A stretch of DNA of 64,000 nucleotides, from contig NZ_CP056030.1 of the NCBI RefSeq assembly GCF_013374995.1, positions 3,938,501 to 4,002,500 on the forward strand, read 5' to 3'. Position numbers and translations under genes: made by a program. A model generated the notes under the pieces. The model made no database searches and was not told the origin of the DNA. It saw nothing but the letters and a program-made list of their open reading frames with translations. Below are positions 43,432 to 56,584 of this stretch, one piece after another. The stretch is from Pseudomonas eucalypticola (GTDB lineage Bacteria > Pseudomonadota > Gammaproteobacteria > Pseudomonadales > Pseudomonadaceae). Position 1 is the first letter of the stretch, and each line of letters begins with the position of its first letter.

Positions 43432-43629
43432 ATGCTGATACTCACCCGTAAAGTAGGCGAGACCATCGTCATCAACGACGACATCAAGATCACCATCCTT
43501 GGCGTCAAGGGGATGCAGGTTCGCATCGGTATCGATGCGCCGAAAGAAGTACAGGTACACCGCGAAGAGATCTACAAACGCATTCAGGCTGGCAGCCCTG
43601 CCCCCGAAAAAGAAGACCACAACCACTAA
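43432..43629 (+). CDS. csrA: Carbon storage/Rsm regulator, CsrA family
   Basis: This small RNA-binding dimer represses or activates mRNAs by covering GGA-containing ribosome sites, and is itself titrated by GacA-activated small RNAs. The 65-residue protein keeps the CsrA core: [34 protein letters not shown] and VHREEIY with the RNA-binding Arg44. The C-terminal extension ([13 protein letters not shown]) differs from the main RsmA and RsmE proteins of Pseudomonas, so it is probably an extra paralogue. The ribosome site AAGGAG is 6-8 bases upstream. Confidence 0.92.
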
Positions 43630-43715
43630 GGTCTCCGCGTTCCCGCCTTGCCGCCTGGGCCGCTGGCCCAGTCGCACGCTTGAGCCCGCCCTCACTCACC
43701 AGCGGCTGATGCCTG

Positions 43716-46121
43716 TCAGGGCAGCGGTTGCGAACCTTCCAGGTTGGACTGCGCCGCCAGTGCGTGCTCCAGTTTCTCGGCCAGTTCATCATCCCGAAAG
43801 GGCTTCTGCACCACCAGCGGCTCATGCCCGCGCAGGCCCTCCAGGTCCGCATACCCCGTGATGAACACTACGGGCAGATGAGGGTGGACGCCACGCGCCA
43901 CCTGGGCCAGTTGCGCGCCGTTCATGCCCGGCATGGCATAGTCGGTCAGCAGCACGTCCACCTCTTCGCTCAACACGTCCAGCGCTGCCTGGCCACTGGC
44001 CGCTTCCAGCACGTTGTACCCCAGTCGGTCGAGCAACTGCGCGGTGACCGCGCGCACCTGATGGTCATCGTCCACCAGCAGTACCGTACGGTTGCCACCT
44101 TGCACCGGCTCGCGACGTACGGGCACGGGCGTCGAGCGCAGGGCAATGGCGTTGAGACTCGGCAAGTAGACGTCCACCGTGGTGCCCTGCCCAGCGGCCG
44201 TGGTGATGCCAACCCCGCCCCCGGACTGCTTGGCGAAGCCGAAGACCTGAGCCAGTCCCAGGCCGGAACCTTTGCCGATGTCCTTGGTGGTAAAGAACGG
44301 CTCGAAGGCCTTGGCCAGCACCGCCTCGCTCATGCCACTGCCTGTATCGCCGATGGACAGCACGACGTAGGCCCCGGGCTCCGGATCCTGTGGGTGCTGC
44401 GCAGGGCGCTCGACCACGGCGTTGCGGGTGGCCAGACGCAGGGTACCGCCGTTGGGCATCGCATCGCGGGCGTTGATGGCCAGGTTGAGGATGATCATCT
44501 CGGTCTGGGTGGGGTCGACCAGCGCGCTCCACAGGGCGTCATCGGTATGGGTCTGGATCCAGATACTGCCACCCAGGGTGCGCTGCAGCAGCTCGAACAT
44601 GCCGAACACTGTGTCGTTGAGGTTGACCGGGATGGGTTCCAGCCGCTGGCGACGGGAAAACGCCAGCAGCTGCGCGGTGAGCTTGGCCCCCCGCTCACCG
44701 GCTTCGCGAATGTTGTGCAGGCGGCTCTGCACCTTTTCCATCACACCGCGCTCCACGTCGCGCGCCAGGAAGGTGGTGCTGGTGAGGATCACCGTCAGCA
44801 GGTTGTTGAAGTCGTGGGCCACGCCGGCCGTGAGCTGCCCCACGGCTTCCAGGCGCTGCATTTGCTGCAGCGTGGCCTCGATGCGTTCGCGCTCTTTAAT
44901 CTGCTGGCGCAGCTGTTCATTGGTGGCGGCCAACTCATCCACCACCGCGCGTTCGCCGGTGATGTCGCGCACCGCGGCATACATCAGGCCATCGTCGGGC
45001 ACGATGGTCCACGACAGCCAGCGGTAGTCACCGTCGGCATGGCGCATGCGGTTGACGAAACGGGTGGAAACATTGCCACTGGCGATGTTCTCGGTTTCGC
45101 GCACCGTGGCGCCGATATCATTGGGGTGCACCAGTTCCCATAGCTGCATCTGCCCCAGGGTTTGCCGGGACCAGCCCAACGTATCCTCCCAGGCGGGGTT
45201 GAGGGCGATGGGCGACATGTCGAAGCGCATCACTGCCAGCAATTCCCGGGACAGCTCCCAGGTACGGTCGCGCTCGCGGGTGCGCTTTTCCACCCGGTCG
45301 CCCAGCAACTCGTTGAGCCGCTGCAAGGCTTCGGTGGCCTGCTTCTGCTCGCTGACGTCCTGAATGACGCCGGTGACCCGCACGCACACCACGCCTTCGA
45401 AAAACGCACGGCCGCTGATGGCCAGCCACCGCTCGCCGCCATCGGGCATCACCGCCCGGTATTCCACCTGGTAGGTGCCGTTGCCCTCCGGCGACATGGC
45501 TTGGGCCATGGCCTCCTCCACCCGTGCGCGGTCGTCGGAGTGGCAGCGGGCCAGGAAATACTCGAGGTCGACCCCCACGTCCGGGCCTATCCCGTACAGG
45601 GCCCGGCAGCGCTCGTCCCATACCAATTGATCAGTGTGCGGCGTGAAGTCCCAGACCCCCATACGCGCCGCGTCGATCGCCAGGTGCGCGCGCACTTCCA
45701 TCTGCTGCAGAGTCTGTTCGGCGCGTACACGCTCACGGCGCTCATGCACTTCCGCCAGCGCTCGCTTGACCGCCTTGGGCAGCAGGGTCAGGTTCTGCTT
45801 GAGCACGTAGTCGATCGCGCCCAGGCGCATCATCTCCACGGCGTTTTCTTCGCCGTACACTCCGGAGAGGAAAATGAAAGGGGTCTGCGGGGCAATTTCC
45901 CGGGCGCGTTGCAGCACCTGGGCCCCCGAAGAACCCGGCAGCAGGAAGTCGCAGAGAATCAGGTCGAACGTCTGGGTGCGCAGCACCTGTTCGGCGCCCT
46001 GGTGGTTGAATACCAGGGTCGACTCGATCACCAGGCCAGCCCGCTCCAGTGTCAGCAGGCACAGTTCGGCGTCACGCGGGCTGTCTTCGATCAGCAGTAG
46101 TTGCAGGGGCTTTGACAGCAT
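43716..46121 (-). CDS. Hybrid histidine kinase, REC-PAS-PAS-HK-REC
   Basis: The 801-residue soluble kinase begins with a receiver domain (MLSKPLQLLLIEDSPRDAEL; Asp near 54 in LILCDFLLPGSSG). Two PAS-type domains follow (about 180-310 and 340-440), then a phospho-acceptor His near 437 in TAGVAHDFNNLLTVIL. The ATP domain has NLAINARDAMPNGGTL and DTGSGMS, and a C-terminal receiver domain is present (TVLLVDDDHQVRAV; VDVLLTDYAMPG; VVQKPF). It is the last gene of the bacteriophytochrome operon, 34 bp after the response regulator. ATG 46121 starts directly at the receiver domain; the longer open frame upstream overlaps the regulator gene and is not credible. Confidence 0.88.
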   Translation of the reverse strand: MLSKPLQLLLIEDSPRDAELCLLTLERAGLVIESTLVFNHQGAEQVLRTQTFDLILCDFLLPGSSGAQVLQRAREIAPQTPFIFLSGVYGEENAVEMMRLGAIDYVLKQNLTLLPKAVKRALAEVHERRERVRAEQTLQQMEVRAHLAIDAARMGVWDFTPHTDQLVWDERCRALYGIGPDVGVDLEYFLARCHSDDRARVEEAMAQAMSPEGNGTYQVEYRAVMPDGGERWLAISGRAFFEGVVCVRVTGVIQDVSEQKQATEALQRLNELLGDRVEKRTRERDRTWELSRELLAVMRFDMSPIALNPAWEDTLGWSRQTLGQMQLWELVHPNDIGATVRETENIASGNVSTRFVNRMRHADGDYRWLSWTIVPDDGLMYAAVRDITGERAVVDELAATNEQLRQQIKERERIEATLQQMQRLEAVGQLTAGVAHDFNNLLTVILTSTTFLARDVERGVMEKVQSRLHNIREAGERGAKLTAQLLAFSRRQRLEPIPVNLNDTVFGMFELLQRTLGGSIWIQTHTDDALWSALVDPTQTEMIILNLAINARDAMPNGGTLRLATRNAVVERPAQHPQDPEPGAYVVLSIGDTGSGMSEAVLAKAFEPFFTTKDIGKGSGLGLAQVFGFAKQSGGGVGITTAAGQGTTVDVYLPSLNAIALRSTPVPVRREPVQGGNRTVLLVDDDHQVRAVTAQLLDRLGYNVLEAASGQAALDVLSEEVDVLLTDYAMPGMNGAQLAQVARGVHPHLPVVFITGYADLEGLRGHEPLVVQKPFRDDELAEKLEHALAAQSNLEGSQPLP

Positions 46122-46155
46122 ACGCAGGTATCGATCTCGTTCAATTGGCCCGTTC

Positions 46156-46614
46156 TCAGGTAGGGCGACGTTGCAGGCGCAGCGAACCAGGCGGTGGCTC
46201 GTTGAGCACCGCCCAGAATACCCCGAGGTCGGAAATCGCCGCGACGAACTCCTTGAACTCCACGGGTTTGACCACGTACGCGTTGACACCCAGTTCATAG
46301 GCGCGCATCAGGTCGGGCTCTTCACGTGACGAGGTCAGCATGACGGTGGGAATACTGCGCAGCTCCGGCGACTCGCGCACCGCCTTGAGCACCTCCAGGC
46401 CATCGACCTTGGGTAGTTTGAGGTCCAGCAGCAAGACCGCCGGGTTGCCCTCCAGCCGTTGGGCGTGGGCGTTGCGGCGCAGCAGGTAATCCAGGGCCTC
46501 GGCGCCGTCACGCATGACGATCACTTCGTTGGCCAGCTGGCTGCGCTCGAGCGCAAGCAGCGTGAGTTCCAGGTCTCGTGGGTTGTCTTCCACCAGCAGG
46601 ATGGGTTTGAGCAT
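46156..46614 (-). CDS. Single-domain response regulator (Rcp1-like)
   Basis: The 152-residue protein is a lone receiver domain: KPILLVEDNPRDLELTL, the phospho-acceptor Asp near 64 in LLLDLKLPKVDG, the Thr/Ser in VMLTSS and the Lys in AYVVKPVEF. Lone receivers of this form, with the NPRD and long beta4-alpha4 region, are usual partners of phytochrome kinases. It starts 17 bp after bphP and should take phosphate from it, with the downstream hybrid kinase as a further relay partner. Confidence 0.88.
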   Translation of the reverse strand: MLKPILLVEDNPRDLELTLLALERSQLANEVIVMRDGAEALDYLLRRNAHAQRLEGNPAVLLLDLKLPKVDGLEVLKAVRESPELRSIPTVMLTSSREEPDLMRAYELGVNAYVVKPVEFKEFVAAISDLGVFWAVLNEPPPGSLRLQRRPT

Positions 46615-46631
46615 CGATAGCCTCGGTAAAA

Positions 46632-48890
46632 TCATGCGGAATTGCGGGCCGGGTGGTGGGGCAAGGCGAAACTGAAGGTCGCCCCTTCGCCCAGGGCACC
46701 CTGGGCCCACACACGGCCGTCATGGCGTTCAATGATACGCCGGACGCTGGCCAAGCCAATGCCGGTACCTTCGAATTCTTCCATGCGATGCAAGCGTTGA
46801 AACACGCCGAACAGCTTGTCCACGTACTGCATGTCAAAGCCGACGCCGTTGTCACGAACATAGACCACGGTTTCGCCATTTTGCTCAGTGGCGCCTATCT
46901 CGATCACCGCAGGGTCGCTGTCCCGACTGTATTTGAGGGCATTGGAAATCAGGTTGCGCAGGGCAAGATGCAGGAACGCGGCATCGGCCAGCACCCGGGG
47001 CAGCGCCTGGACGTGCCACTGCACATCGCGGCCTTCGTAGTCAGGGATCATTTCCTGACGGATGGCGTCCACCAGCGCGCCCAGGTCGACATCGGACAAG
47101 CGCAGGGCGGAACGGCCCATCTGCGAGAAGCTCAGCAGGTTGTCCACCAGGCTGCCGGCGAATCGCGCCGACTCGCCGATGTGGTCGAGGAAGCGTTGGC
47201 CACGCTCCGATAGCTTCTCGCCCTCGAAGTCGCCCAATAGCTCGGCATAGCCGGCAATATGCCGCAACGGTGCCCGCAGGTCGTGAGACACGCTGTAGGA
47301 GAAAGCTTCGAGCTCCTTGTTGGAGCGCTTGAGTTCGCCCGCCAGCTGCGCCAGCTCCTCGGCCTTGCGCAACACGATGCCGAGCACCGCGGTGCGCAGC
47401 TCGGCCACCCCTTCGATTTCCAACGGGTCCCAAGGGCTGGAATAGCCTTTGACGGTTTCCTGCCAGCTGTCGAAACTGTGGCGTGGGTTGAGCGCGCCGC
47501 TGTCACTGATGCTTTTTTCCGGCTTGCCCGCCCAGTTCACACTGCGGGCCTGCTCGGGCTTGAACCAGATCAGGTAGTGGGAGTGGATTTCCGAGATGGC
47601 CACGGCCAGCACGCCACCCACCTGGGCAGCCAGGCCAGGCAACGACGGAATATCGCGGCCTACATTGTCGCTGTGAAAGACTTCATGGCCACCGCGCTCG
47701 GCCAGCCATTCGGTCAGGGCCTGCACCTGGGCTTCATCGGGGGTCTGGCCGACCAGGTCGCAGCTGGAGGCGGTAATGATCGCCGCGCCCTGGGCACGGG
47801 CAAAGCCGAGCAAGGTATCGCTCAGGGCCAACGCACCGTCACGCACGCTGTCACGGTCGGCCATGGCCGACAGCAGTTGCACGATCTGCTGGCGCACGCC
47901 CAGCAAGCGCTGATTGCGCACGTGCAACTCCATCGACTCGATTTGCAACGACAGCACGCTGCCCAGCAGCTCGCACGCCGTGCGGCTCTGGAACCGCACC
48001 GCCTTGGGTTCGGCATGGTGACAGGAGATCAAGCCCCACAGCCGCCCACCGACCACAATGGAAATCGACATGGACGCCAAGGTGCGCATGTTGCGCATGT
48101 ATTGCAGATGAACCGGCGAGACGCTGCGCAACGCCGCGTGACTAAGGTCTAGCGGCCGCTCGGTCAAGGGGTTGAGAGCGGGCACCAGAGCCGCGGGCAC
48201 GTAGTTGGCATCCTCGATCACACGGATGCGGTTGGCGCAGTACAGTGCGCGCGCCTGGGGCGGAATGTCTGCCGCAGGAAAGCACAGGCCCAGGTAGCTG
48301 GGGTAACCCGGGTCGGCCAGTTCGGCCAATACCAGGCCATCACCGGCTTCGTCGAAGCGGTAAGCCTTGACGCGGCCGAAGCCTGTGATGCGCTTCACCT
48401 CTGCCACCGCCTGGGCGCAGACCTGTTCAATGCTTTCGGCACCTTGCAGTTGGCCGATGAAGGTACGCACCAAAGGGTAAAGGTTGGCGTAGGCGGTCAG
48501 CACATCGCTGGCGGGCTCGAACTCGGCAATCAGCACACCGTCGAAACGGTGCACCATCAGCGCGATGGGCGGGCCCTGATAGTTGCCTACGGCGAAGCGC
48601 ACATCCGCCACATGCATGGGCTTGTGTTCGTCGCTGGTGCGCTCGGCCAACAGCCGCGCCACCTGATCGCCGCCCAGCAGCAGCTCCGGCAGGCGTCGCC
48701 CCAGCCACTGTAGCGCCGCCTCGCCAAGCCAGCGGTGAATGTTCTCACTGGCCTGCAGCACCGCCAGACTGTCGGGGTCCAGAACCAGCATGAAACCGTG
48801 GGGCTGAATGCTGCCAGGCAAATGAATGGGCTCTTTCGCGCAATTGGCGGTGGCCTGAGCCAAAGCCGCTGAAATGTCGCCGGATGTCAA
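46632..48890 (-). CDS. bphP: Bacteriophytochrome histidine kinase
   Basis: This is a red/far-red light sensor kinase that binds biliverdin. From TTG 48890 (AAGGAG seven bases upstream) the 752-residue product has Cys17 in ATANCAKEPIHLPG, the expected N-terminal chromophore-binding cysteine. PAS and GAF domains follow with FPAADIPPQARALY near 208, then a PHY domain with the tongue motif PRHSFDSW. The kinase has His near 534 in SYSVSHDLRAPLRH, and LRNLISNALKYS and DNGVGFDMQY. A longer start at ATG 48950 would put the Cys at 37 and lacks a good ribosome site. A heme oxygenase gene (bphO), often next to bphP, is absent here. Confidence 0.92.
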   Translation of the reverse strand: MTSGDISAALAQATANCAKEPIHLPGSIQPHGFMLVLDPDSLAVLQASENIHRWLGEAALQWLGRRLPELLLGGDQVARLLAERTSDEHKPMHVADVRFAVGNYQGPPIALMVHRFDGVLIAEFEPASDVLTAYANLYPLVRTFIGQLQGAESIEQVCAQAVAEVKRITGFGRVKAYRFDEAGDGLVLAELADPGYPSYLGLCFPAADIPPQARALYCANRIRVIEDANYVPAALVPALNPLTERPLDLSHAALRSVSPVHLQYMRNMRTLASMSISIVVGGRLWGLISCHHAEPKAVRFQSRTACELLGSVLSLQIESMELHVRNQRLLGVRQQIVQLLSAMADRDSVRDGALALSDTLLGFARAQGAAIITASSCDLVGQTPDEAQVQALTEWLAERGGHEVFHSDNVGRDIPSLPGLAAQVGGVLAVAISEIHSHYLIWFKPEQARSVNWAGKPEKSISDSGALNPRHSFDSWQETVKGYSSPWDPLEIEGVAELRTAVLGIVLRKAEELAQLAGELKRSNKELEAFSYSVSHDLRAPLRHIAGYAELLGDFEGEKLSERGQRFLDHIGESARFAGSLVDNLLSFSQMGRSALRLSDVDLGALVDAIRQEMIPDYEGRDVQWHVQALPRVLADAAFLHLALRNLISNALKYSRDSDPAVIEIGATEQNGETVVYVRDNGVGFDMQYVDKLFGVFQRLHRMEEFEGTGIGLASVRRIIERHDGRVWAQGALGEGATFSFALPHHPARNSA

Positions 48891-49127
48891 AGAAGATCTC
48901 CTTGTGCGTGCCCCGTTCTCTGCGCTGGAACGGGCACGTATCGTGGTCATCCGCTTGTTGTTAAACAGACACTCACGACTCAGACAGCACGATATCAAAT
49001 TCTATCGCTGCAACTGCAAAAAAAGTGGCTTTTACATGGCACCAGGCCGGTAGCCGGCGATGGCGAAGTAGCCCCTGCAGGACCAGACGAAGCTCGGGCG
49101 GGGCCAGATGCACGGCGGCTTGGCGCC

Positions 49128-50396: not shown

Positions 50397-50483
50397 TGGT
50401 GCCCGGAGCCGGGGTCGAACCGGCACGTCCTTACGAACGGGGGATTTTAAGTCCCATGCGTCTACCAATTTCGCCATCCGGGC
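50397..50483 (-). tRNA. tRNA-Leu, anticodon TAA
   Basis: This is an 87-base leucine tRNA with encoded CCA. The acceptor strands are GCCCGGA and TCCGGGC, the anticodon loop reads CTTAAAA (anticodon TAA), there is a long variable arm as expected for tRNA-Leu, and the T-arm has GGTTCGACCCC. It has its own terminator downstream and is separated from tRNA-Cys by another one, so it needs its own promoter; a weak minus-strand -10 box TAAGAT lies at 50512-50517. Confidence 0.97.
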
Positions 50484-50666
50484 GGTAGCGCGATACAGCC
50501 TGAGTGCGAGGGATCTTACACCCCTGCCCCGCCTTCATACGGAACCCTAATAACGTTTAAACCGTTTTAGCGCACCAACAGCGAGCCGATGAATATATAC
50601 ACCCGTCCCTGAACAAGCAACAACGTTCAGGCACTTTCCCAGACAAAATATTTCATTGCCTGGAAA

Positions 50667-50702
50667 TAAAAAAGCCCTGTAGATCAGTGATCTACAGGGC
50701 TT
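50667..50702 (-). terminator. Intrinsic terminator after tRNA-Cys
   Basis: GCCCTGTAGATCA (50674-50686) and TGATCTACAGGGC (50688-50700) form a perfect 13-bp inverted repeat with one central base. On the minus strand it is followed by a run of T residues (plus strand AAATAAAAAA). It ends the pgsA-tRNA-Gly-tRNA-Cys transcript. Confidence 0.9.
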
Positions 50703-50710
50703 CGTTATAA

Positions 50711-50784
50711 TGGAGGCCGAGGTCGGAATCGAACCGGCGTAGACGGATTTGCAATCCGGAGCATAACCACTTTGCTACTCGGCC
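50711..50784 (-). tRNA. tRNA-Cys, anticodon GCA
   Basis: This is a 74-base tRNA with encoded CCA. The acceptor strands are GGCCGAG and CTCGGCC, the anticodon loop is TTTGCAA (anticodon GCA), the T-arm is GGTTCGATTCC and the discriminator base is U, typical of tRNA-Cys. It lies 42 bases downstream of tRNA-Gly in the same transcript. Confidence 0.97.
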
Positions 50785-50826
50785 TCAAATGTACAGCAAC
50801 TTACAACCGCTGCTCCACATAAAAAC

Positions 50827-50902
<76 letters not shown>

Positions 50903-50968: not shown

Positions 50969-51529
50969 TTATTTATTTTCAGTTTGGCTGTTCAGGTGCG
51001 GCCAGGCGGCACGCAGGTAGTGGGCCATGGACCACAGCGTCAGGCCAGCCGCGACCATCAGCAAGGTGTAGCCCAGCAGCACCCAGGCGTCGATCTGCGC
51101 GGGGTTGCCCAGCAGGATCACCAGGGCGAGCATTTGCGCCGCGGTTTTCCACTTGCCCATGCTGGACACGGCCACATGGGCACGCGCACCGATTTCGGCC
51201 ATCCACTCGCGCAAGGCAGAGACGACGATTTCCCGGCCGATGATCACTGCCGCAGGCAGGGTCAGCCAGACGTTATGGTGCTCCTGCACCAGCAGCACCA
51301 GGGCCACGGCTACCATCAGCTTGTCGGCCACCGGGTCCAGGAAGGCGCCGAAGGGTGTGCTCTGCTCCAGGCGCCGGGCCAAATAGCCGTCCAGCCAGTC
51401 GGTGGCTGCGGCGATGGCGAAGACCGTGCTGGCCGCCGCATAGCTCCACGTATAGGGGAGGTAGAACAGCAGGATGAAAAACGGAATGAGCAGGACGCGC
51501 AGAACGGTAAGCAGGTTCGGGATATTCAT
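50969..51529 (-). CDS. pgsA: CDP-diacylglycerol-glycerol-3-phosphate 3-phosphatidyltransferase
   Basis: PgsA joins CDP-diacylglycerol with glycerol-3-phosphate, the committed step to phosphatidylglycerol and cardiolipin in the inner membrane. The 186-residue protein starts [18 protein letters not shown] and has the CDP-alcohol phosphotransferase motif spread over [12 protein letters not shown]...[10 protein letters not shown], with the four metal-binding aspartates. Several membrane helices are evident. ATG 51529 is used; ATG 51535 is possible. It follows uvrC by 33 bp and precedes three tRNA genes. Confidence 0.95.
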
Positions 51530-51562
51530 CGGCACAACTGGCGGCTGGGTGAGTGGGGCATT

Positions 51563-53386
51563 CTACTCGCTGTGCAGGTTCGCATAAATCGACTCTGCGA
51601 GCTTTTTGCTGATCCCCGGGGCTTTGGCGATTTCGTCGATGCTTGCACGAGACAGCTCTTGCAGGCCACCAAAATGTTTCAATAAATCACGACGACGCTT
51701 GGGCCCTACCCCCGCCACCCCTTCCAGGGTGGAGGTGCGACGGGTTTTTCCACGCCGGGCGCGGTGGCCGGTGATGGCAAAGCGGTGAGCTTCGTCGCGG
51801 ATCTGCTGGATCAGGTGCAACGCGGGGGAATCGCCCTTGAGGGTGAACTCATGGGCCACGTCATTGAGGTACAGGGTCTCGAAACCGGCCTTGCGGGTGG
51901 TGCCCTTGGCCACGCCCAGCAGGATCAGGTCGGGGATCGCCAGTTCCTGGAGCACGTCGCGGGCCATGTTCAACTGGCCCTTGCCGCCGTCCACCAGCAG
52001 CACGTCGGGCAGCTTGCCCTCGCCGTCCTTGATACGGCTGAAGCGCCGCGTCAGGGCCTGGTGCATGGCCGCGTAGTCGTCGCCGGCGGTGACGCCCTCG
52101 ATGTTGTAGCGGCGATAGTCCGACTTGATCGGCCCCTCGGGGCCGAACACCACGCAGGACGCCACGGTGGCCTCGCCGCTGGAGTGACTGATGTCGTAGC
52201 ATTCCAGGCGTTGAGGCGGCTCGTCCAGGTTGAGCACATCGGCCAGGGCCTCGAACCGCGCCGCCACATGTTGGCGGTTGGCCAGCCGCGCAGCCAGGGC
52301 TTGCTCGGCATTGGTGACGGCCAGTTGTTGCCAGCGTGCCCGGGTACCGCGCACCCGGTGGCTGACGCTCAACTCGCGGCCGCGCAGGGTGTCGATGGCG
52401 GCCACCAGGGCCTCGACATCCTCCGGCACCACGTTGACGATCAGTTCCGCCGGCAGGTCGCGCTCGCTGCTGGTGAGGTAATACTGGGCCAGGAACGCCG
52501 ACATGACCTCGGCAACCTCTTCCTCGATACCCACCTGGGGAAAGAAATTCTTGCTGCCCAGCACCCGCCCGCCCCGCACGCTGATCAGGTGCACGCAAGC
52601 GCCGCCCGGGTTGACGAACGCGGCGACCACGTCCACATCGCCGCTGCCGCCTTCCATGTTCTGCTGGTCCTGCACCCGGCGCAGCAAGGCGATCTGGTCA
52701 CGCAACAGCGCAGCGTTCTCGAAATCCAGGCCCATGGCGGCTTTTTCCATGCTCGCCGACAGTTCATCGGTGAGCTGGTGGCTGCGCCCCTCCAGGAACA
52801 TGATGGAGTGACGCACGTCCTCGGCATATTCCTGCGGCTCCACCAGGCCCACGCACGGCGCCTTGCAGCGCTTGATCTGGTATTGCAGGCACGGGCGGGT
52901 GCGGTTCCTGTAGTAGCTGTCCTCGCACTGGCGCACGAAGAACGTCTTCTGCAGCAGGCTCAGGCTTTCGCGAATGGCGCCGGCACTGGGGTACGGCCCG
53001 AAATACTTGCCCTTGGCCTTCTTCGCCCCACGATGAATGCTCAGCCGTGGGAACGCACCGTCGGACAGGAACACGTAGGGGTAGGATTTGTCGTCGCGCA
53101 GCAGGATGTTGTACGGCGGCCGCCATTCCTTGATGAGCGTCTGCTCCAGCAGCAGCGCTTCGGTTTCGTTGCCGGTGATGGTGGTTTCCACCTGGGCGAT
53201 TCGCCCGACCAGCGCAGCGGTCTTGGGCGCCAGGCCGGTCTTGCGAAAATAGCTGGCCAGGCGTTTCTTGAGGTTCTTGGCCTTGCCGACGTAAAGCAGG
53301 CGTGCCTCGCTGTCGAACATGCGGTAGACACCCGGGCGGGCGCTGCAGGTGGACAGGAAGGCAGAAGGTTCGAAGGGGGTTTCCAT
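51563..53386 (-). CDS. uvrC: Excinuclease ABC subunit C
   Basis: UvrC makes the two cuts around a lesion in nucleotide excision repair with UvrA and UvrB. The 607-residue protein has the GIY-YIG nuclease domain at the N-terminus ([20 protein letters not shown]), the UvrB-binding UVR region near 205, the RNase H-like C-terminal nuclease ([36 protein letters not shown]) and tandem helix-hairpin-helix motifs ([18 protein letters not shown]). ATG 53386 lies 2 bases after the gacA stop; TTG 53392 overlaps it. Confidence 0.97.
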
Positions 53387-53388
53387 GT

Positions 53389-54032
53389 TCAAAGGCTGGC
53401 GTCGACCATACCGTGTCGCACGGCCAGCAAGGTGAGTTCGACGTCACTGGCGATCGACAACTTTTCAAAGATGCGGTAGCGGTAAGTATTCACCGTTTTG
53501 GGTGAAAGGCATAGCTTGTCGGAGATGATCTGCACTTTCTGGCAGTTGACGATCATCAGCGCGATCTGGATCTCACGTTCGGACAACAGGTCGAACGGCG
53601 AGTTCGTGGTCTGCGGCTGGAACGACTTGAGCGCCAGCTGCTGGGCGATCTGCGGGCTGATGTAGCGCTGGCCGGCGAACACCAGGCGAATGGCCTGGAC
53701 CATTTCATCGAGCCCCGCCCCCTTGGTCAGGTAGCCAGCGGCACCGGCCTGGAGCAACCGGGTGGGGAACGGGTCTTCCTCACAGACAGTCACGGCCACC
53801 ACCTTGATGTCCGGGTGCCTGCTGAGCAACTTGCGGGTCGCCTCAAGGCCGCCGATGCCGGGCATCTTGACGTCCATGAGCACCACGTCTGGCTTGAGGT
53901 CGCTGGTGAATTTCAGGGCGTCTTCACCCGATTCCGCCTGGCCGATGACCTGCAGCCCGTCGATGTCGGCCAACATCCGAGTGATGCCTGTACGTACCAG
54001 ATCATGATCATCGACAACTAGGCCCTAATCAA
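53389..54032 (-). pseudogene. gacA: Response regulator GacA, frameshifted at codon 4
   Basis: GacA is the response regulator of the GacS/GacA system that switches on the Rsm small RNAs, and through them secondary metabolism, secretion and biofilm traits. The reading frame gives VVDDHDLVRTGITRMLADID, the phospho-acceptor Asp in VVLMDVKMPGIGGLE and a C-terminal LuxR-type HTH (LSEREIQIALMIV; SPKTVNTYRYRIFEKL). It covers the whole protein except the first residues. The usual TTG start (54032-54030) has GAGGTG five bases upstream, but reads TTG ATT AGG GCC TAG: one base is missing in codon 4, normally Val, and the frame stops. The next standard start, ATG 53976, loses about 19 residues including the acidic pair Asp8-Asp9 and the first beta strand, and has no ribosome site. 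uvrC follows directly. Confidence 0.85.
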
Positions 54033-54143
54033 GCAGACACCTCGTTCTTGGGCTTTGAAGGAATTGTTAGCCACCTTAGCAAAAAATCGGATCCGGAACC
54101 TAGCGCAAAGCGTCATGCACATGACGCCATGCGTCCGTTGCCA

Positions 54144-54818: not shown

Positions 54819-55253
54819 TCAGTCGGCGCTGAGGCGCTCCATGCGCCAGAAGCACTCGTCTTCACCGACTTCGGCAAAGCCCTTGCGCACGTACAGGTGG
54901 CGTGCCGGGTTGGACTGGAACACCATCAGCCGCACCCGTGGCAGGCGCCTTTCGCGGGCCAGGTCCATGATGCGGTCCAGTGCCCAGCCACCGATACCCC
55001 GGTTGCGCGCCTCGGGCAGCAGGTGCAGTTCACGGATGAACAGCGCCTGCCGGTCAATGCTGAGGCTGAAGTACCCCTGGGCAATGCCGTCGGCCAGGAT
55101 GATGAAATTGTCCCGCCACAGCCACGCCTGGTTGAACGCCTCCTCTTGCCACAACAAGCTGTAACGGCCGTAATAAGGCAGCATGGCCTGGCGCGTCAGG
55201 TTGCGGGAAAAATCCAGGTCGCCCTCGGTGGCGGCACGCAATTCAAGCCGCAT
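54819..55253 (-). CDS. GNAT-family N-acetyltransferase
   Basis: The 144-residue protein has the GNAT acetyl-CoA site: LFIRELHLLPEARNRGIGGW (the R/QxxGxG/A loop) near residue 90, and the C-terminal VRLMVFQSNPARHLYVRKGF with the usual Asn and Tyr. The target amine is unknown. It overlaps the upstream nitrilase-family gene by 11 bp, so the two are probably translated together. Confidence 0.85.
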   Translation of the reverse strand: MRLELRAATEGDLDFSRNLTRQAMLPYYGRYSLLWQEEAFNQAWLWRDNFIILADGIAQGYFSLSIDRQALFIRELHLLPEARNRGIGGWALDRIMDLARERRLPRVRLMVFQSNPARHLYVRKGFAEVGEDECFWRMERLSAD

Positions 55254-56019
55254 CCGCCCCTCCCTCGGCCACCAGGCCTTCGACCCGAGCCTGCCAGCCC
55301 TCGCCCGTGCGCCGCGCTACCAGCAGCTGTTCACCGGCCCCGTTGACCGCCACCACCAAGCGCCCCTGGGCATCCCACAGCGCGCTGCGTCCAGCCGCCT
55401 GCCAGCCGCCGGTGGGCCCCCCGTGGTTGGCCAGCAGCACGGCCATGCCATGGGTGCGGGCATAGCCCTGAAGGATGTGACTGTCGGCCGGGTAGCCCGC
55501 CTCACCTATGAGCACGCTGGCGGCATACACAGTGGCCCCCGCCTCACGGGCCAGGCGCGCGTGCTCGGGGCGAGTGAAGTCGGCGCACACCGCCAGGGCG
55601 ATGTGCTCGCCCCCCAGGTGCAGGGGCGCACCGCCGATGCCGGCGGCGAAAAAAACCTCTTCACCGCCGTGCAGGTGTTGCTTGGTATAGACCGTCTGGT
55701 CGCCATTGGCGTGCAGTACCAGCGCGCCTATCCGCACTTCCGTTTGGGTGGATTCGCGCAACGGCAAGCCGACCACCGTCGTCATGCCCAGTGTTCGCGC
55801 CCGATCGCGCAGCGGCTGCAGCAGCGGCGTAGCGGCGGGTTGCGCCAGCGCGGCCGCCAGGGTGGGCTCGTAACCGGTCAGCGACAGCTCCGGGAACAGC
55901 AGACATTGCACGCCATGGTGCGCGGCACGGTCCATGAACTGCAGGTGGCGGGCGATATTGGCGGCCAGGTCGCCGGCAATGGCGCAGGTCTGGGCGGCGG
56001 CGATGCACAGGGCGGTCAT
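55243..56019 (-). CDS. Carbon-nitrogen hydrolase (nitrilase superfamily)
   Basis: The 258-residue protein has the nitrilase-fold catalytic triad: Glu in LLFPELSLTGY near residue 45, Lys in TVYTKQHLHGGEEVFF near 112, and Cys in IALAVCADFTRPEHA near 146. Members hydrolyse amides or nitriles, and the group with this motif context includes omega-amidases and carbamoyl hydrolases. ATG 56019 follows AGGACA; longer open frames upstream run into the aroF leader promoter region. It is coupled to the GNAT gene. The substrate is unknown. Confidence 0.85.
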   Translation of the reverse strand: MTALCIAAAQTCAIAGDLAANIARHLQFMDRAAHHGVQCLLFPELSLTGYEPTLAAALAQPAATPLLQPLRDRARTLGMTTVVGLPLRESTQTEVRIGALVLHANGDQTVYTKQHLHGGEEVFFAAGIGGAPLHLGGEHIALAVCADFTRPEHARLAREAGATVYAASVLIGEAGYPADSHILQGYARTHGMAVLLANHGGPTGGWQAAGRSALWDAQGRLVVAVNGAGEQLLVARRTGEGWQARVEGLVAEGGADAA

Positions 56020-56112
56020 GAGATGTCCTGATCTCGAAATGATGAAATGAATGATGCCACAAACCTGACAGCGATCACTCACAGGGCCGCGGCATAAAAC
56101 CGCAGATAACAC

Positions 56113-56142
56113 TTGAACAGTGCGCAATCGCTGCAGTAAGCT
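56113..56142 (+). promoter_or_regulatory. Predicted promoter of the aroF leader transcript
   Basis: TTGAAC (56113-56118) and TAAGCT (56137-56142) are separated by 18 bases. They lie 25 bases before the first leader peptide start, giving a short 5' end as in amino-acid attenuators. Confidence 0.5.
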
Positions 56143-56166
56143 CGGCGCATCTTGACGGAGACATCC

Positions 56167-56301
56167 ATGTCCAACGCCCTTCACACTCAGGCTCAGCACA
56201 CTGCCAGCGCACGTCGCTCGGTAGCGGTTGCGGCTGTGCGTTCGGCTGCCGTCGTTGCAGATTATTACTATGGGTATTGGTTTAGCCACTGGCGCGCCTG
56301 A
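56167..56301 (+). CDS. Leader peptide 1 of the DAHP synthase transcript (aromatic-rich)
   Basis: A 44-codon frame starts at ATG 56167 with GGAG seven bases upstream. After an Ala/Val/Arg-rich first part it contains DYYYGYWFSHW (residues 32-42): four Tyr, two Trp and one Phe codons in eleven, then ends at TGA 56299. A strong intrinsic terminator begins 50 bases later. This layout is that of a ribosome-stalling leader for aromatic amino acids: slow reading of Tyr/Phe/Trp codons would change RNA pairing and spare the terminator. The run TGGG-TAT-TGG in the codon stretch can pair with CCA-GAA-CCCA (56310s-56330) downstream. Confidence 0.7.
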   Translation: MSNALHTQAQHTASARRSVAVAAVRSAAVVADYYYGYWFSHWRA

Positions 56302-56350
56302 TACCCTTATCCGGCGGCCAGAACCCAAGGTCGCCCGGTTTGAGAAACTC

Positions 56351-56393
56351 CAAAACCCCCGGTCGGCCTCCCGACCGGGGGTTTTGTTTTTTT
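56351..56393 (+). terminator. Attenuator terminator before aroF
   Basis: A perfect 16-bp stem (56351-56366 with 56371-56386, loop CCTC) is followed by seven T residues (56387-56393). It lies between leader peptide 1 and the second leader frame, about 240 bp before aroF on the same strand. The convergent alternative is excluded because the T-run is on the plus strand after the stem. Confidence 0.9.
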
Positions 56394-56440
56394 CGCCACC
56401 TGTTTTCCCTTTTTGCCATTTGCCACAGAGGATCGACCCC

Positions 56441-56584
56441 ATGAACTACGCCACCTATTACCGCTACGACTATTGCACCGCCTGGCGATTTACCACCCTC
56501 CGTTCGGGACAGCTTGCCGCCTCCGACCGGTCGTGCCTGGGTGGCCATGCGCTAACACATACCAATAGTCGAACATCGCGATAG
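56441..56584 (+). CDS. Leader peptide 2 of the DAHP synthase transcript (Tyr-rich)
   Basis: A second short frame, 47 codons, starts at ATG 56441 with AGAGGA eight bases upstream. It begins MNYATYYRYDYCTAWRF: five Tyr, one Trp and one Phe in the first 17 residues. Unlike leader 1, its tail is long (30 residues, Ser/Thr/Arg-rich). Its TAG stop (56582-56584) touches the first base of a hairpin that runs up to the aroF ribosome site. It may therefore act on translation of aroF rather than on termination. That both frames are by chance aromatic-rich is unlikely. Confidence 0.6.
   Translation: MNYATYYRYDYCTAWRFTTLRSGQLAASDRSCLGGHALTHTNSRTSR

What the first reader, a model, noticed from the sequence alone, without database searches (positions are those of the whole stretch)
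53389..54032. gacA carries a one-base deletion in codon 4 that should abolish the global regulator GacA
The whole GacA sequence is present in one frame from VVDDHDL onward. The usual TTG start, with GAGGTG five bases upstream, is in the other frame: it reads TTG ATT AGG GCC then TAG. Adding one base in codon 4 (plus strand around 54021-54024) joins the frames exactly and restores a normal start and 214 residues. The only standard start left, ATG 53976, removes the first strand and the Asp8-Asp9 pair needed for phosphorylation. Spontaneous gacA loss is well known in cultured Pseudomonas and changes secondary metabolism, secretion and biofilm behaviour. The bphP/Rsm block and the rest of the window look intact.
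Basis: partly seen in the sequence, partly recalled or inferred. Interest (0 to 1): 0.85.

Follow-up and report, generated by a model that had tools for sequence, protein, structure and literature searches.

The report
Broken start of Pseudomonas gacA gene
In this Pseudomonas genome the gene for the master regulator GacA has lost its reading frame a few codons after its start, most likely an ordinary spontaneous loss of a regulator that cultured pseudomonads often lose, although a sequencing error cannot be ruled out without the raw reads.

Summary
On the minus strand the conserved ribosome site and TTG start (54032) read four codons, then TAG (54020-54018). The GacA frame opens only at 54024, with no start before ATG 53976 (Met20). 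All 109 gacA loci examined from other genomes run unbroken from TTG; this genome's place is the only broken one. The 195-residue remnant lacks the first receiver strand and Asp8-Asp9 (Pfam receiver match from position 20 against 1). No second gacA was found. gacS, three csrA genes, rsmX1, rsmX2, rsmY, rsmZ and rpoS look intact. Against the nearest relative the remaining codons show 28 synonymous and 0 nonsynonymous differences, so the break is recent. No other convincing break appeared among 237 compared genes (four start-extension cases unchecked). This fits a spontaneous gac loss-of-function mutant, a known phenomenon. A control tempers it: in 398 Pseudomonas genomes gacA is visibly disrupted in 4 (this one included) and uvrC in 6. 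Sequencing error remains possible.

The parts
54038..54043 (-). GAGGTG ribosome-binding site of gacA
   Evidence: sequence; duplex with anti-Shine-Dalgarno -7.2 kcal/mol against -2.5 for ATG 53976
54018..54032 (-). conserved gacA start TTG followed by three codons and TAG: all that the normal start can now translate
   Evidence: TTG start in 109 of 109 other loci examined
54018..54027 (-). place where the two frames fail to join; one base fewer than in relatives
53389..54024 (-). rest of gacA, uninterrupted in its own frame but with no start codon before 53976
   Evidence: (open frame 211 aa)
53389..53976 (-). longest translatable remnant, Met20 to end, 195 aa: receiver without its first strand, plus LuxR-type HTH
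   Evidence: PF00072 positions 20-111; PF00196
53913..54017 (-). short out-of-frame readings from TTG 54017, ATG 54011 and ATG 54005 directly after the TAG; they pass over ATG 53976 in another frame and would compete with restart there
   Evidence: frames and stop; end coordinate counted
51563..53392 (-). uvrC, directly downstream, intact
   Evidence: 607 aa from ATG 53386, 100% (rounded) identical to G051, no stop inside
50969..51535 (-). pgsA-like gene, next in the same direction
   Evidence: ORF; gene name taken from the gacA-uvrC-pgsA order reported in PMC6786584 (passages), not tested by a family search

Best explanation
The sequenced culture carries a recent spontaneous loss-of-function mutation in gacA. 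Ribosomes start at the normal TTG and stop after four codons; the GacA frame downstream has no start before Met20, which has a weak ribosome site and lies behind two out-of-frame ATGs. Little or no GacA is made, and any remnant lacks the first receiver strand and Asp8-Asp9, so GacS could not activate it. RsmX1, RsmX2, RsmY and RsmZ would then not be induced, the RsmA-type proteins would stay free, and Gac-dependent traits (exoproducts, secondary metabolites) would be off. Shown: the frame break, its absence from 109 other loci, the intact rest of the pathway, the recent date. Inferred: that the base is missing in the cells, and every step from missing GacA onward (from general knowledge of the Gac/Rsm pathway).
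For: Frame break and no upstream in-frame start. Unbroken in 109 of 109 other loci examined. No second gacA: next best own match is 35% identical. Receiver match starts at profile position 20. gacS 916 aa with all its domains; three CsrA genes; rsmY, rsmZ, two rsmX above Rfam cut-offs; rpoS above cut-off. 28 synonymous and 0 nonsynonymous codon differences to G051 over 210 codons, stop included. Of 159 plus 78 genes of G051 compared with this genome, gacA is the only one convincingly split inside a conserved protein (with; four start-extension cases not checked one by one). Spontaneous gac loss is documented, also in a published genome: Pf0-1 (passages of PMC3390384); six gacA mutations in three of five evolved lines (passages of PMC8262913); loss said to be frequent in culture and nature (passages of PMC12482163).
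Against: No reads. In the same 398 genomes uvrC gives two matches instead of one in 6 and gacA is visibly disrupted in 4, or 3 of 397 if this genome, chosen because it is broken, is left out. Per residue gacA has 1.9 times (1.4 times) the rate of uvrC, on tiny counts. Technical breaks alone could account for such numbers. The unchanged amino-acid sequence is equally expected if GacA is still made.
Confidence: 0.6

Rival explanations
1. Sequencing or assembly error: the strain has an ordinary gacA and the consensus lacks one base.
For: Single-gene breaks turn up in deposited genomes of the genus in the neighbour gene too: uvrC gives two matches in 6 of 398, four of these six in assemblies of one or two contigs (their coordinates were not in the capped list, so not every one need be a frame break). 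This genome also has only 2 contigs. Everything after the break is identical in protein to the nearest relative's GacA.
Against: The site has no run longer than 3, so it is not a typical homopolymer slip. Completeness is given as 100%. In 237 gene comparisons with G051 no other break inside a conserved protein was convincing; taking the four unchecked start-extension cases as not real, the rate is below about 1.3% of genes (rule of three). A random error would fall in gacA, about 1% of this window, only by chance.
Confidence: 0.33
2. The remnant works: a 195-residue GacA from Met20, or full-length GacA made by ribosomes that slip at the break, keeps some regulation, perhaps independent of GacS.
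For: The remnant keeps its HTH domain. No nonsynonymous change against G051.
Against: Weak ribosome site at Met20 (-2.5 against -7.2 kcal/mol) and out-of-frame ATGs just before it. No unusual RNA structure over the start (z 0.01). I saw no classical slippery heptamer at the joint (by eye, no call). The receiver lacks its first strand and acidic pair.
Confidence: 0.05
3. An old pseudogene: this lineage gave up GacA long ago.
For: A frame break stands in the consensus of the sequenced culture.
Against: 0 nonsynonymous against 28 synonymous codon differences to G051. If G000's half of the divergence had been unconstrained, about 40 nonsynonymous changes would be expected (my estimate), so the broken state covers less than about a tenth of that time. 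The rest of the pathway is kept.
Confidence: 0.02

Closest known systems
gacA mutation in the published genome of Pseudomonas fluorescens Pf0-1 (PMC3390384, passages seen)
   Same: A sequenced pseudomonad whose gacA is defective; the authors write that one cannot know whether it was there before isolation or arose in storage.
   Different: There gacA was sequenced again and the phenotypes tested; here neither could be done. The nature of the Pf0-1 mutation was not in the passages.
gacA/gacS mutants of P. protegens CHA0 in rhizosphere evolution (PMC8262913, passages seen)
   Same: Repeated independent gacA hits, including a nonsense allele and an upstream change.
   Different: The gacA changes in the passages were base substitutions, not a frame break near the start.
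GacA/UvrY/SirA response regulators (NarL/LuxR class)
   Same: Sequence from residue 5 on, HTH domain, uvrC directly downstream, conserved TTG start.
   Different: The start no longer leads into the frame.
Disrupted gacA in genomes G042, G272 and G315 of the same genus
   Same: gacA interrupted in genomes rated 100% complete.
   Different: Other places and kinds: small deletion with frame change near residue 84-89, frame change near residue 107, interruption near residue 126 close to the ends of two contigs.

Membership tests
GacA/UvrY response regulator (as an encoded, working protein) | complete receiver domain with acidic pair and phospho-acceptor Asp | tested here: not met
   Longest translatable product matches PF00072 from position 20 only; intact relative from position 1
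GacA/UvrY response regulator (as an encoded, working protein) | LuxR-type HTH (GerE) domain | tested here: met
   PF00196, 52.6 bits
GacA/UvrY response regulator (as an encoded, working protein) | conserved TTG start joined in frame to the receiver | tested here: not met
   Met in 109 of 109 other loci examined, not in this genome
GacA orthologue (as a locus) | sequence identity and uvrC directly downstream | tested here: met
   Residues 5-214 100% identical to G051; uvrC at 51563-53392
spontaneous gac loss-of-function mutant | disruptive change in gacA or gacS with the rest of the pathway intact | tested here: met
   at the level of the deposited sequence only
spontaneous gac loss-of-function mutant | change present in the cells, not only in the consensus | not testable with these tools
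   no raw reads and no second assembly of the strain
spontaneous gac loss-of-function mutant | loss of Gac-dependent traits and of rsm RNA induction | not testable with these tools
   needs the strain
spontaneous gac loss-of-function mutant | excess of breaks in gacA over a control gene across the genus (my own criterion, not a published definition) | tested here: inconclusive
   4 of 398 genomes for gacA (214 aa; 3 of 397 without this one) against 6 of 398 for uvrC (607 aa)

The most novel reading that the evidence does not exclude
The strain really lives with a start-truncated GacA: the Met20 remnant, freed from its receiver, acts on rsm promoters without GacS, or a low level of ribosome slippage gives a trickle of full-length GacA, so the break tunes the pathway rather than closing it.
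Probability: 0.04. Interest if true: 0.6.

Novelty: new member of a known kind. Interest (0 to 1): 0.22.

Why it matters
If the base is truly missing, this reference genome comes from a gac-negative culture. Phenotypes measured on that stock (exoenzymes, antibiotics, biofilm, motility, plant effects) would not represent the species, and its gene clusters could look falsely silent, as reported for Pf0-1. If it is an error, the annotation wrongly shows a truncated or missing global regulator. Either way it is a quality flag, not a new biological principle.

Tried and rejected
Second gacA elsewhere in the genome: none seen; next own match 35% identical. Poor assembly as the explanation: tested by comparing genes of the nearest relative G051 with this genome. 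Of 7 frame-split candidates among 159 genes, three are long antisense or upstream readings over other intact genes (metH/cti, two small genes, a TonB receptor), three split only in a 22-28 residue start extension (in two the family match begins after the split; the third, in L131, was not checked further), and gacA remains. A second block gave 3 of 78, again only start extensions, of lower identity; these three were not checked one by one. In the reverse direction the counts were 1 of 154 and 1 of 78, also start extensions. A plain count of alignment gaps was of no use because the aligner opens many gaps in diverged stretches. Recoding at the break: no structure beyond shuffles. Enrichment of gacA breaks in the genus: not shown. 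Strict GacA-box pattern TGTAAG-N6-CTTACA (recalled): no match in the 231 loci then held; a looser form lies upstream of rsmY, with no match in the loci of rsmZ or rsmX. Weak gacA matches in G277, G278, G295, G370 and G420 were set aside as incomplete genomes (completeness 73-78); G431 reads as N at the gene start and was not judged; G371 is a near-full-length 72% match. The survey sees only breaks that cut the match strongly, and one search listed only its best rows, so 4 of 398 is a lower bound. Intact copies in sister strains: a protein search (7999 candidates scored, best 120 of 1096 listed) showed nothing above 92% identity, so no sister strain was found. Species: not identified; the closest named record among the 80 kept is gamma proteobacterium L18 (96% protein, 89% DNA).

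Full report
What is there. On the minus strand the sequence GAGGTG, five bases, TTG (54032) is followed by ATT AGG GCC and TAG (54020-54018). The frame that encodes GacA is closed just upstream by another TAG (54027-54025) and is open from 54024 to the stop ending at 53389; its first ordinary start is ATG 53976, Met20 of GacA, with TTG 53973 right behind it.

Is it peculiar to this genome? I compared 111 gacA loci: 80 from genomes with named records (the best 80 of 554 relatives), 30 from a search of 144 relatives and this genome (the best 30 of 92 genomes with a match), and one from the own-genome search. All 109 from other genomes have TTG as start and run in frame into VVDDHDLVR; 99 read LIRVLV, 9 LIKVLV and 1 LIRGLV (P. 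lini, L074). The two broken rows are the same place in this genome. The same genome may stand in both searches, but 108 of the 109 intact copies are distinct in DNA over the stretch compared. The nearest relative, G051, has an intact 214-residue GacA identical to this genome's from residue 5 on. The whole-genome search found no second gacA here; the next match is 35% identical. No sister strain of the same species was found in a protein search.

What the break does. The longest product that a start codon can give is 195 residues. Its receiver matches Pfam PF00072 only from position 20, where intact GacA matches from position 1; the HTH domain is unchanged. The lost part holds the first strand and the Asp8-Asp9 pair, which align with the VDDH stretch of VraR, a relative of solved structure; that such an acidic pair is needed for phosphorylation is recalled knowledge. 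The ribosome site of the normal start pairs with anti-Shine-Dalgarno at -7.2 kcal/mol, that of Met20 at -2.5, and two out-of-frame ATGs (54011 at -3.4, 54005 at -2.1) follow the TAG and pass over Met20 in another frame. The RNA over the start shows no unusual structure. So I expect little or no GacA and no activatable GacA. This is inference; nothing was measured.

The rest of the pathway. gacS is present as 916 residues with sensor, HAMP, HisKA, ATPase, receiver and Hpt domains. Three CsrA-type genes exist, one in the window at 43432-43629. rsmY, rsmZ and two tandem rsmX genes pass Rfam's cut-offs. Two 7TMR-DISM kinases of the RetS/LadS type (names recalled) are there, and RpoS passes its family cut-off without a stop. 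uvrC, directly downstream, is intact. In P. syringae DC3000 a Tn5 insertion in gacA lowered uvrC expression while deletion of gacA did not (passages of PMC6786584), so an effect on uvrC here is possible but not shown.

When. Over 210 codons, stop included, this genome differs from G051 by 28 synonymous and 0 nonsynonymous codons, and from L006 by 63 and 7 over 209 codons. The protein was under selection until recently. With equal branches and no constraint after the break, the broken state covers less than about a tenth of the time since the split from G051 (my estimate).

Real or error? For reality: no run longer than three at the site, completeness 100%, and no other convincing frame break among 159 plus 78 gene comparisons with G051 (how the other candidates were dismissed, and which four were not checked, is told under tried and rejected). 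Also, gacA is a gene that cultures do lose: the published Pf0-1 genome carries a gacA mutation (passages), evolved lines pick up gacA mutations repeatedly (passages), and a recent paper calls GacA loss frequent in culture and nature (passages). Against: in 398 genomes of the genus, gacA is visibly disrupted in 4 (this one, G042, G272, G315), but uvrC gives two matches in 6 and gacS more than one in 2. Per residue gacA has 1.9 times the rate of uvrC, or 1.4 times without this genome, on counts too small to matter. So the survey does not show that gacA is special, and a technical slip keeps about a one in three chance in my judgement.

Verdict. It is an instance of a known phenomenon, useful as a warning about this reference strain, and of low general interest.

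Noticed in passing
L236 and L242 (G272), L235 and L245 (G042), L234 and L243 (G315): gacA is also disrupted in three other species genomes of the genus, each in a different way; G315 looks like an insertion because the gene halves lie close to the ends of two contigs.
   Followed up: partly
G034, G187, G253, G290, G413, G434, G178: uvrC gives two matches instead of one in six genomes; G178, rated 99% complete, has no uvrC match at the threshold.
   Followed up: no
   Followed up: no
L074 (Pseudomonas lini DSM 16768): Intact gacA with Gly instead of Val at residue 4, the only such case among the 109 loci examined.
   Followed up: no
window 43432-48998: A csrA/rsm gene, a PAS/receiver hybrid kinase (43716-46298) and a phytochrome kinase (46632-48998) lie side by side.
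   Followed up: no
window 56259-56381 +: Pseudomonas sRNA P15 (RF00627, 95.4 bits); three tRNA genes lie at 50400-50902 on the minus strand.
   Followed up: no
L224 1500-1607 and 1731-1838: Two tandem rsmX genes in this genome, both above the Rfam cut-off.
   Followed up: no
window 55243-56442 -: Carbon-nitrogen hydrolase ORF whose family match begins only at residue 147, so the true start is probably downstream.
   Followed up: no
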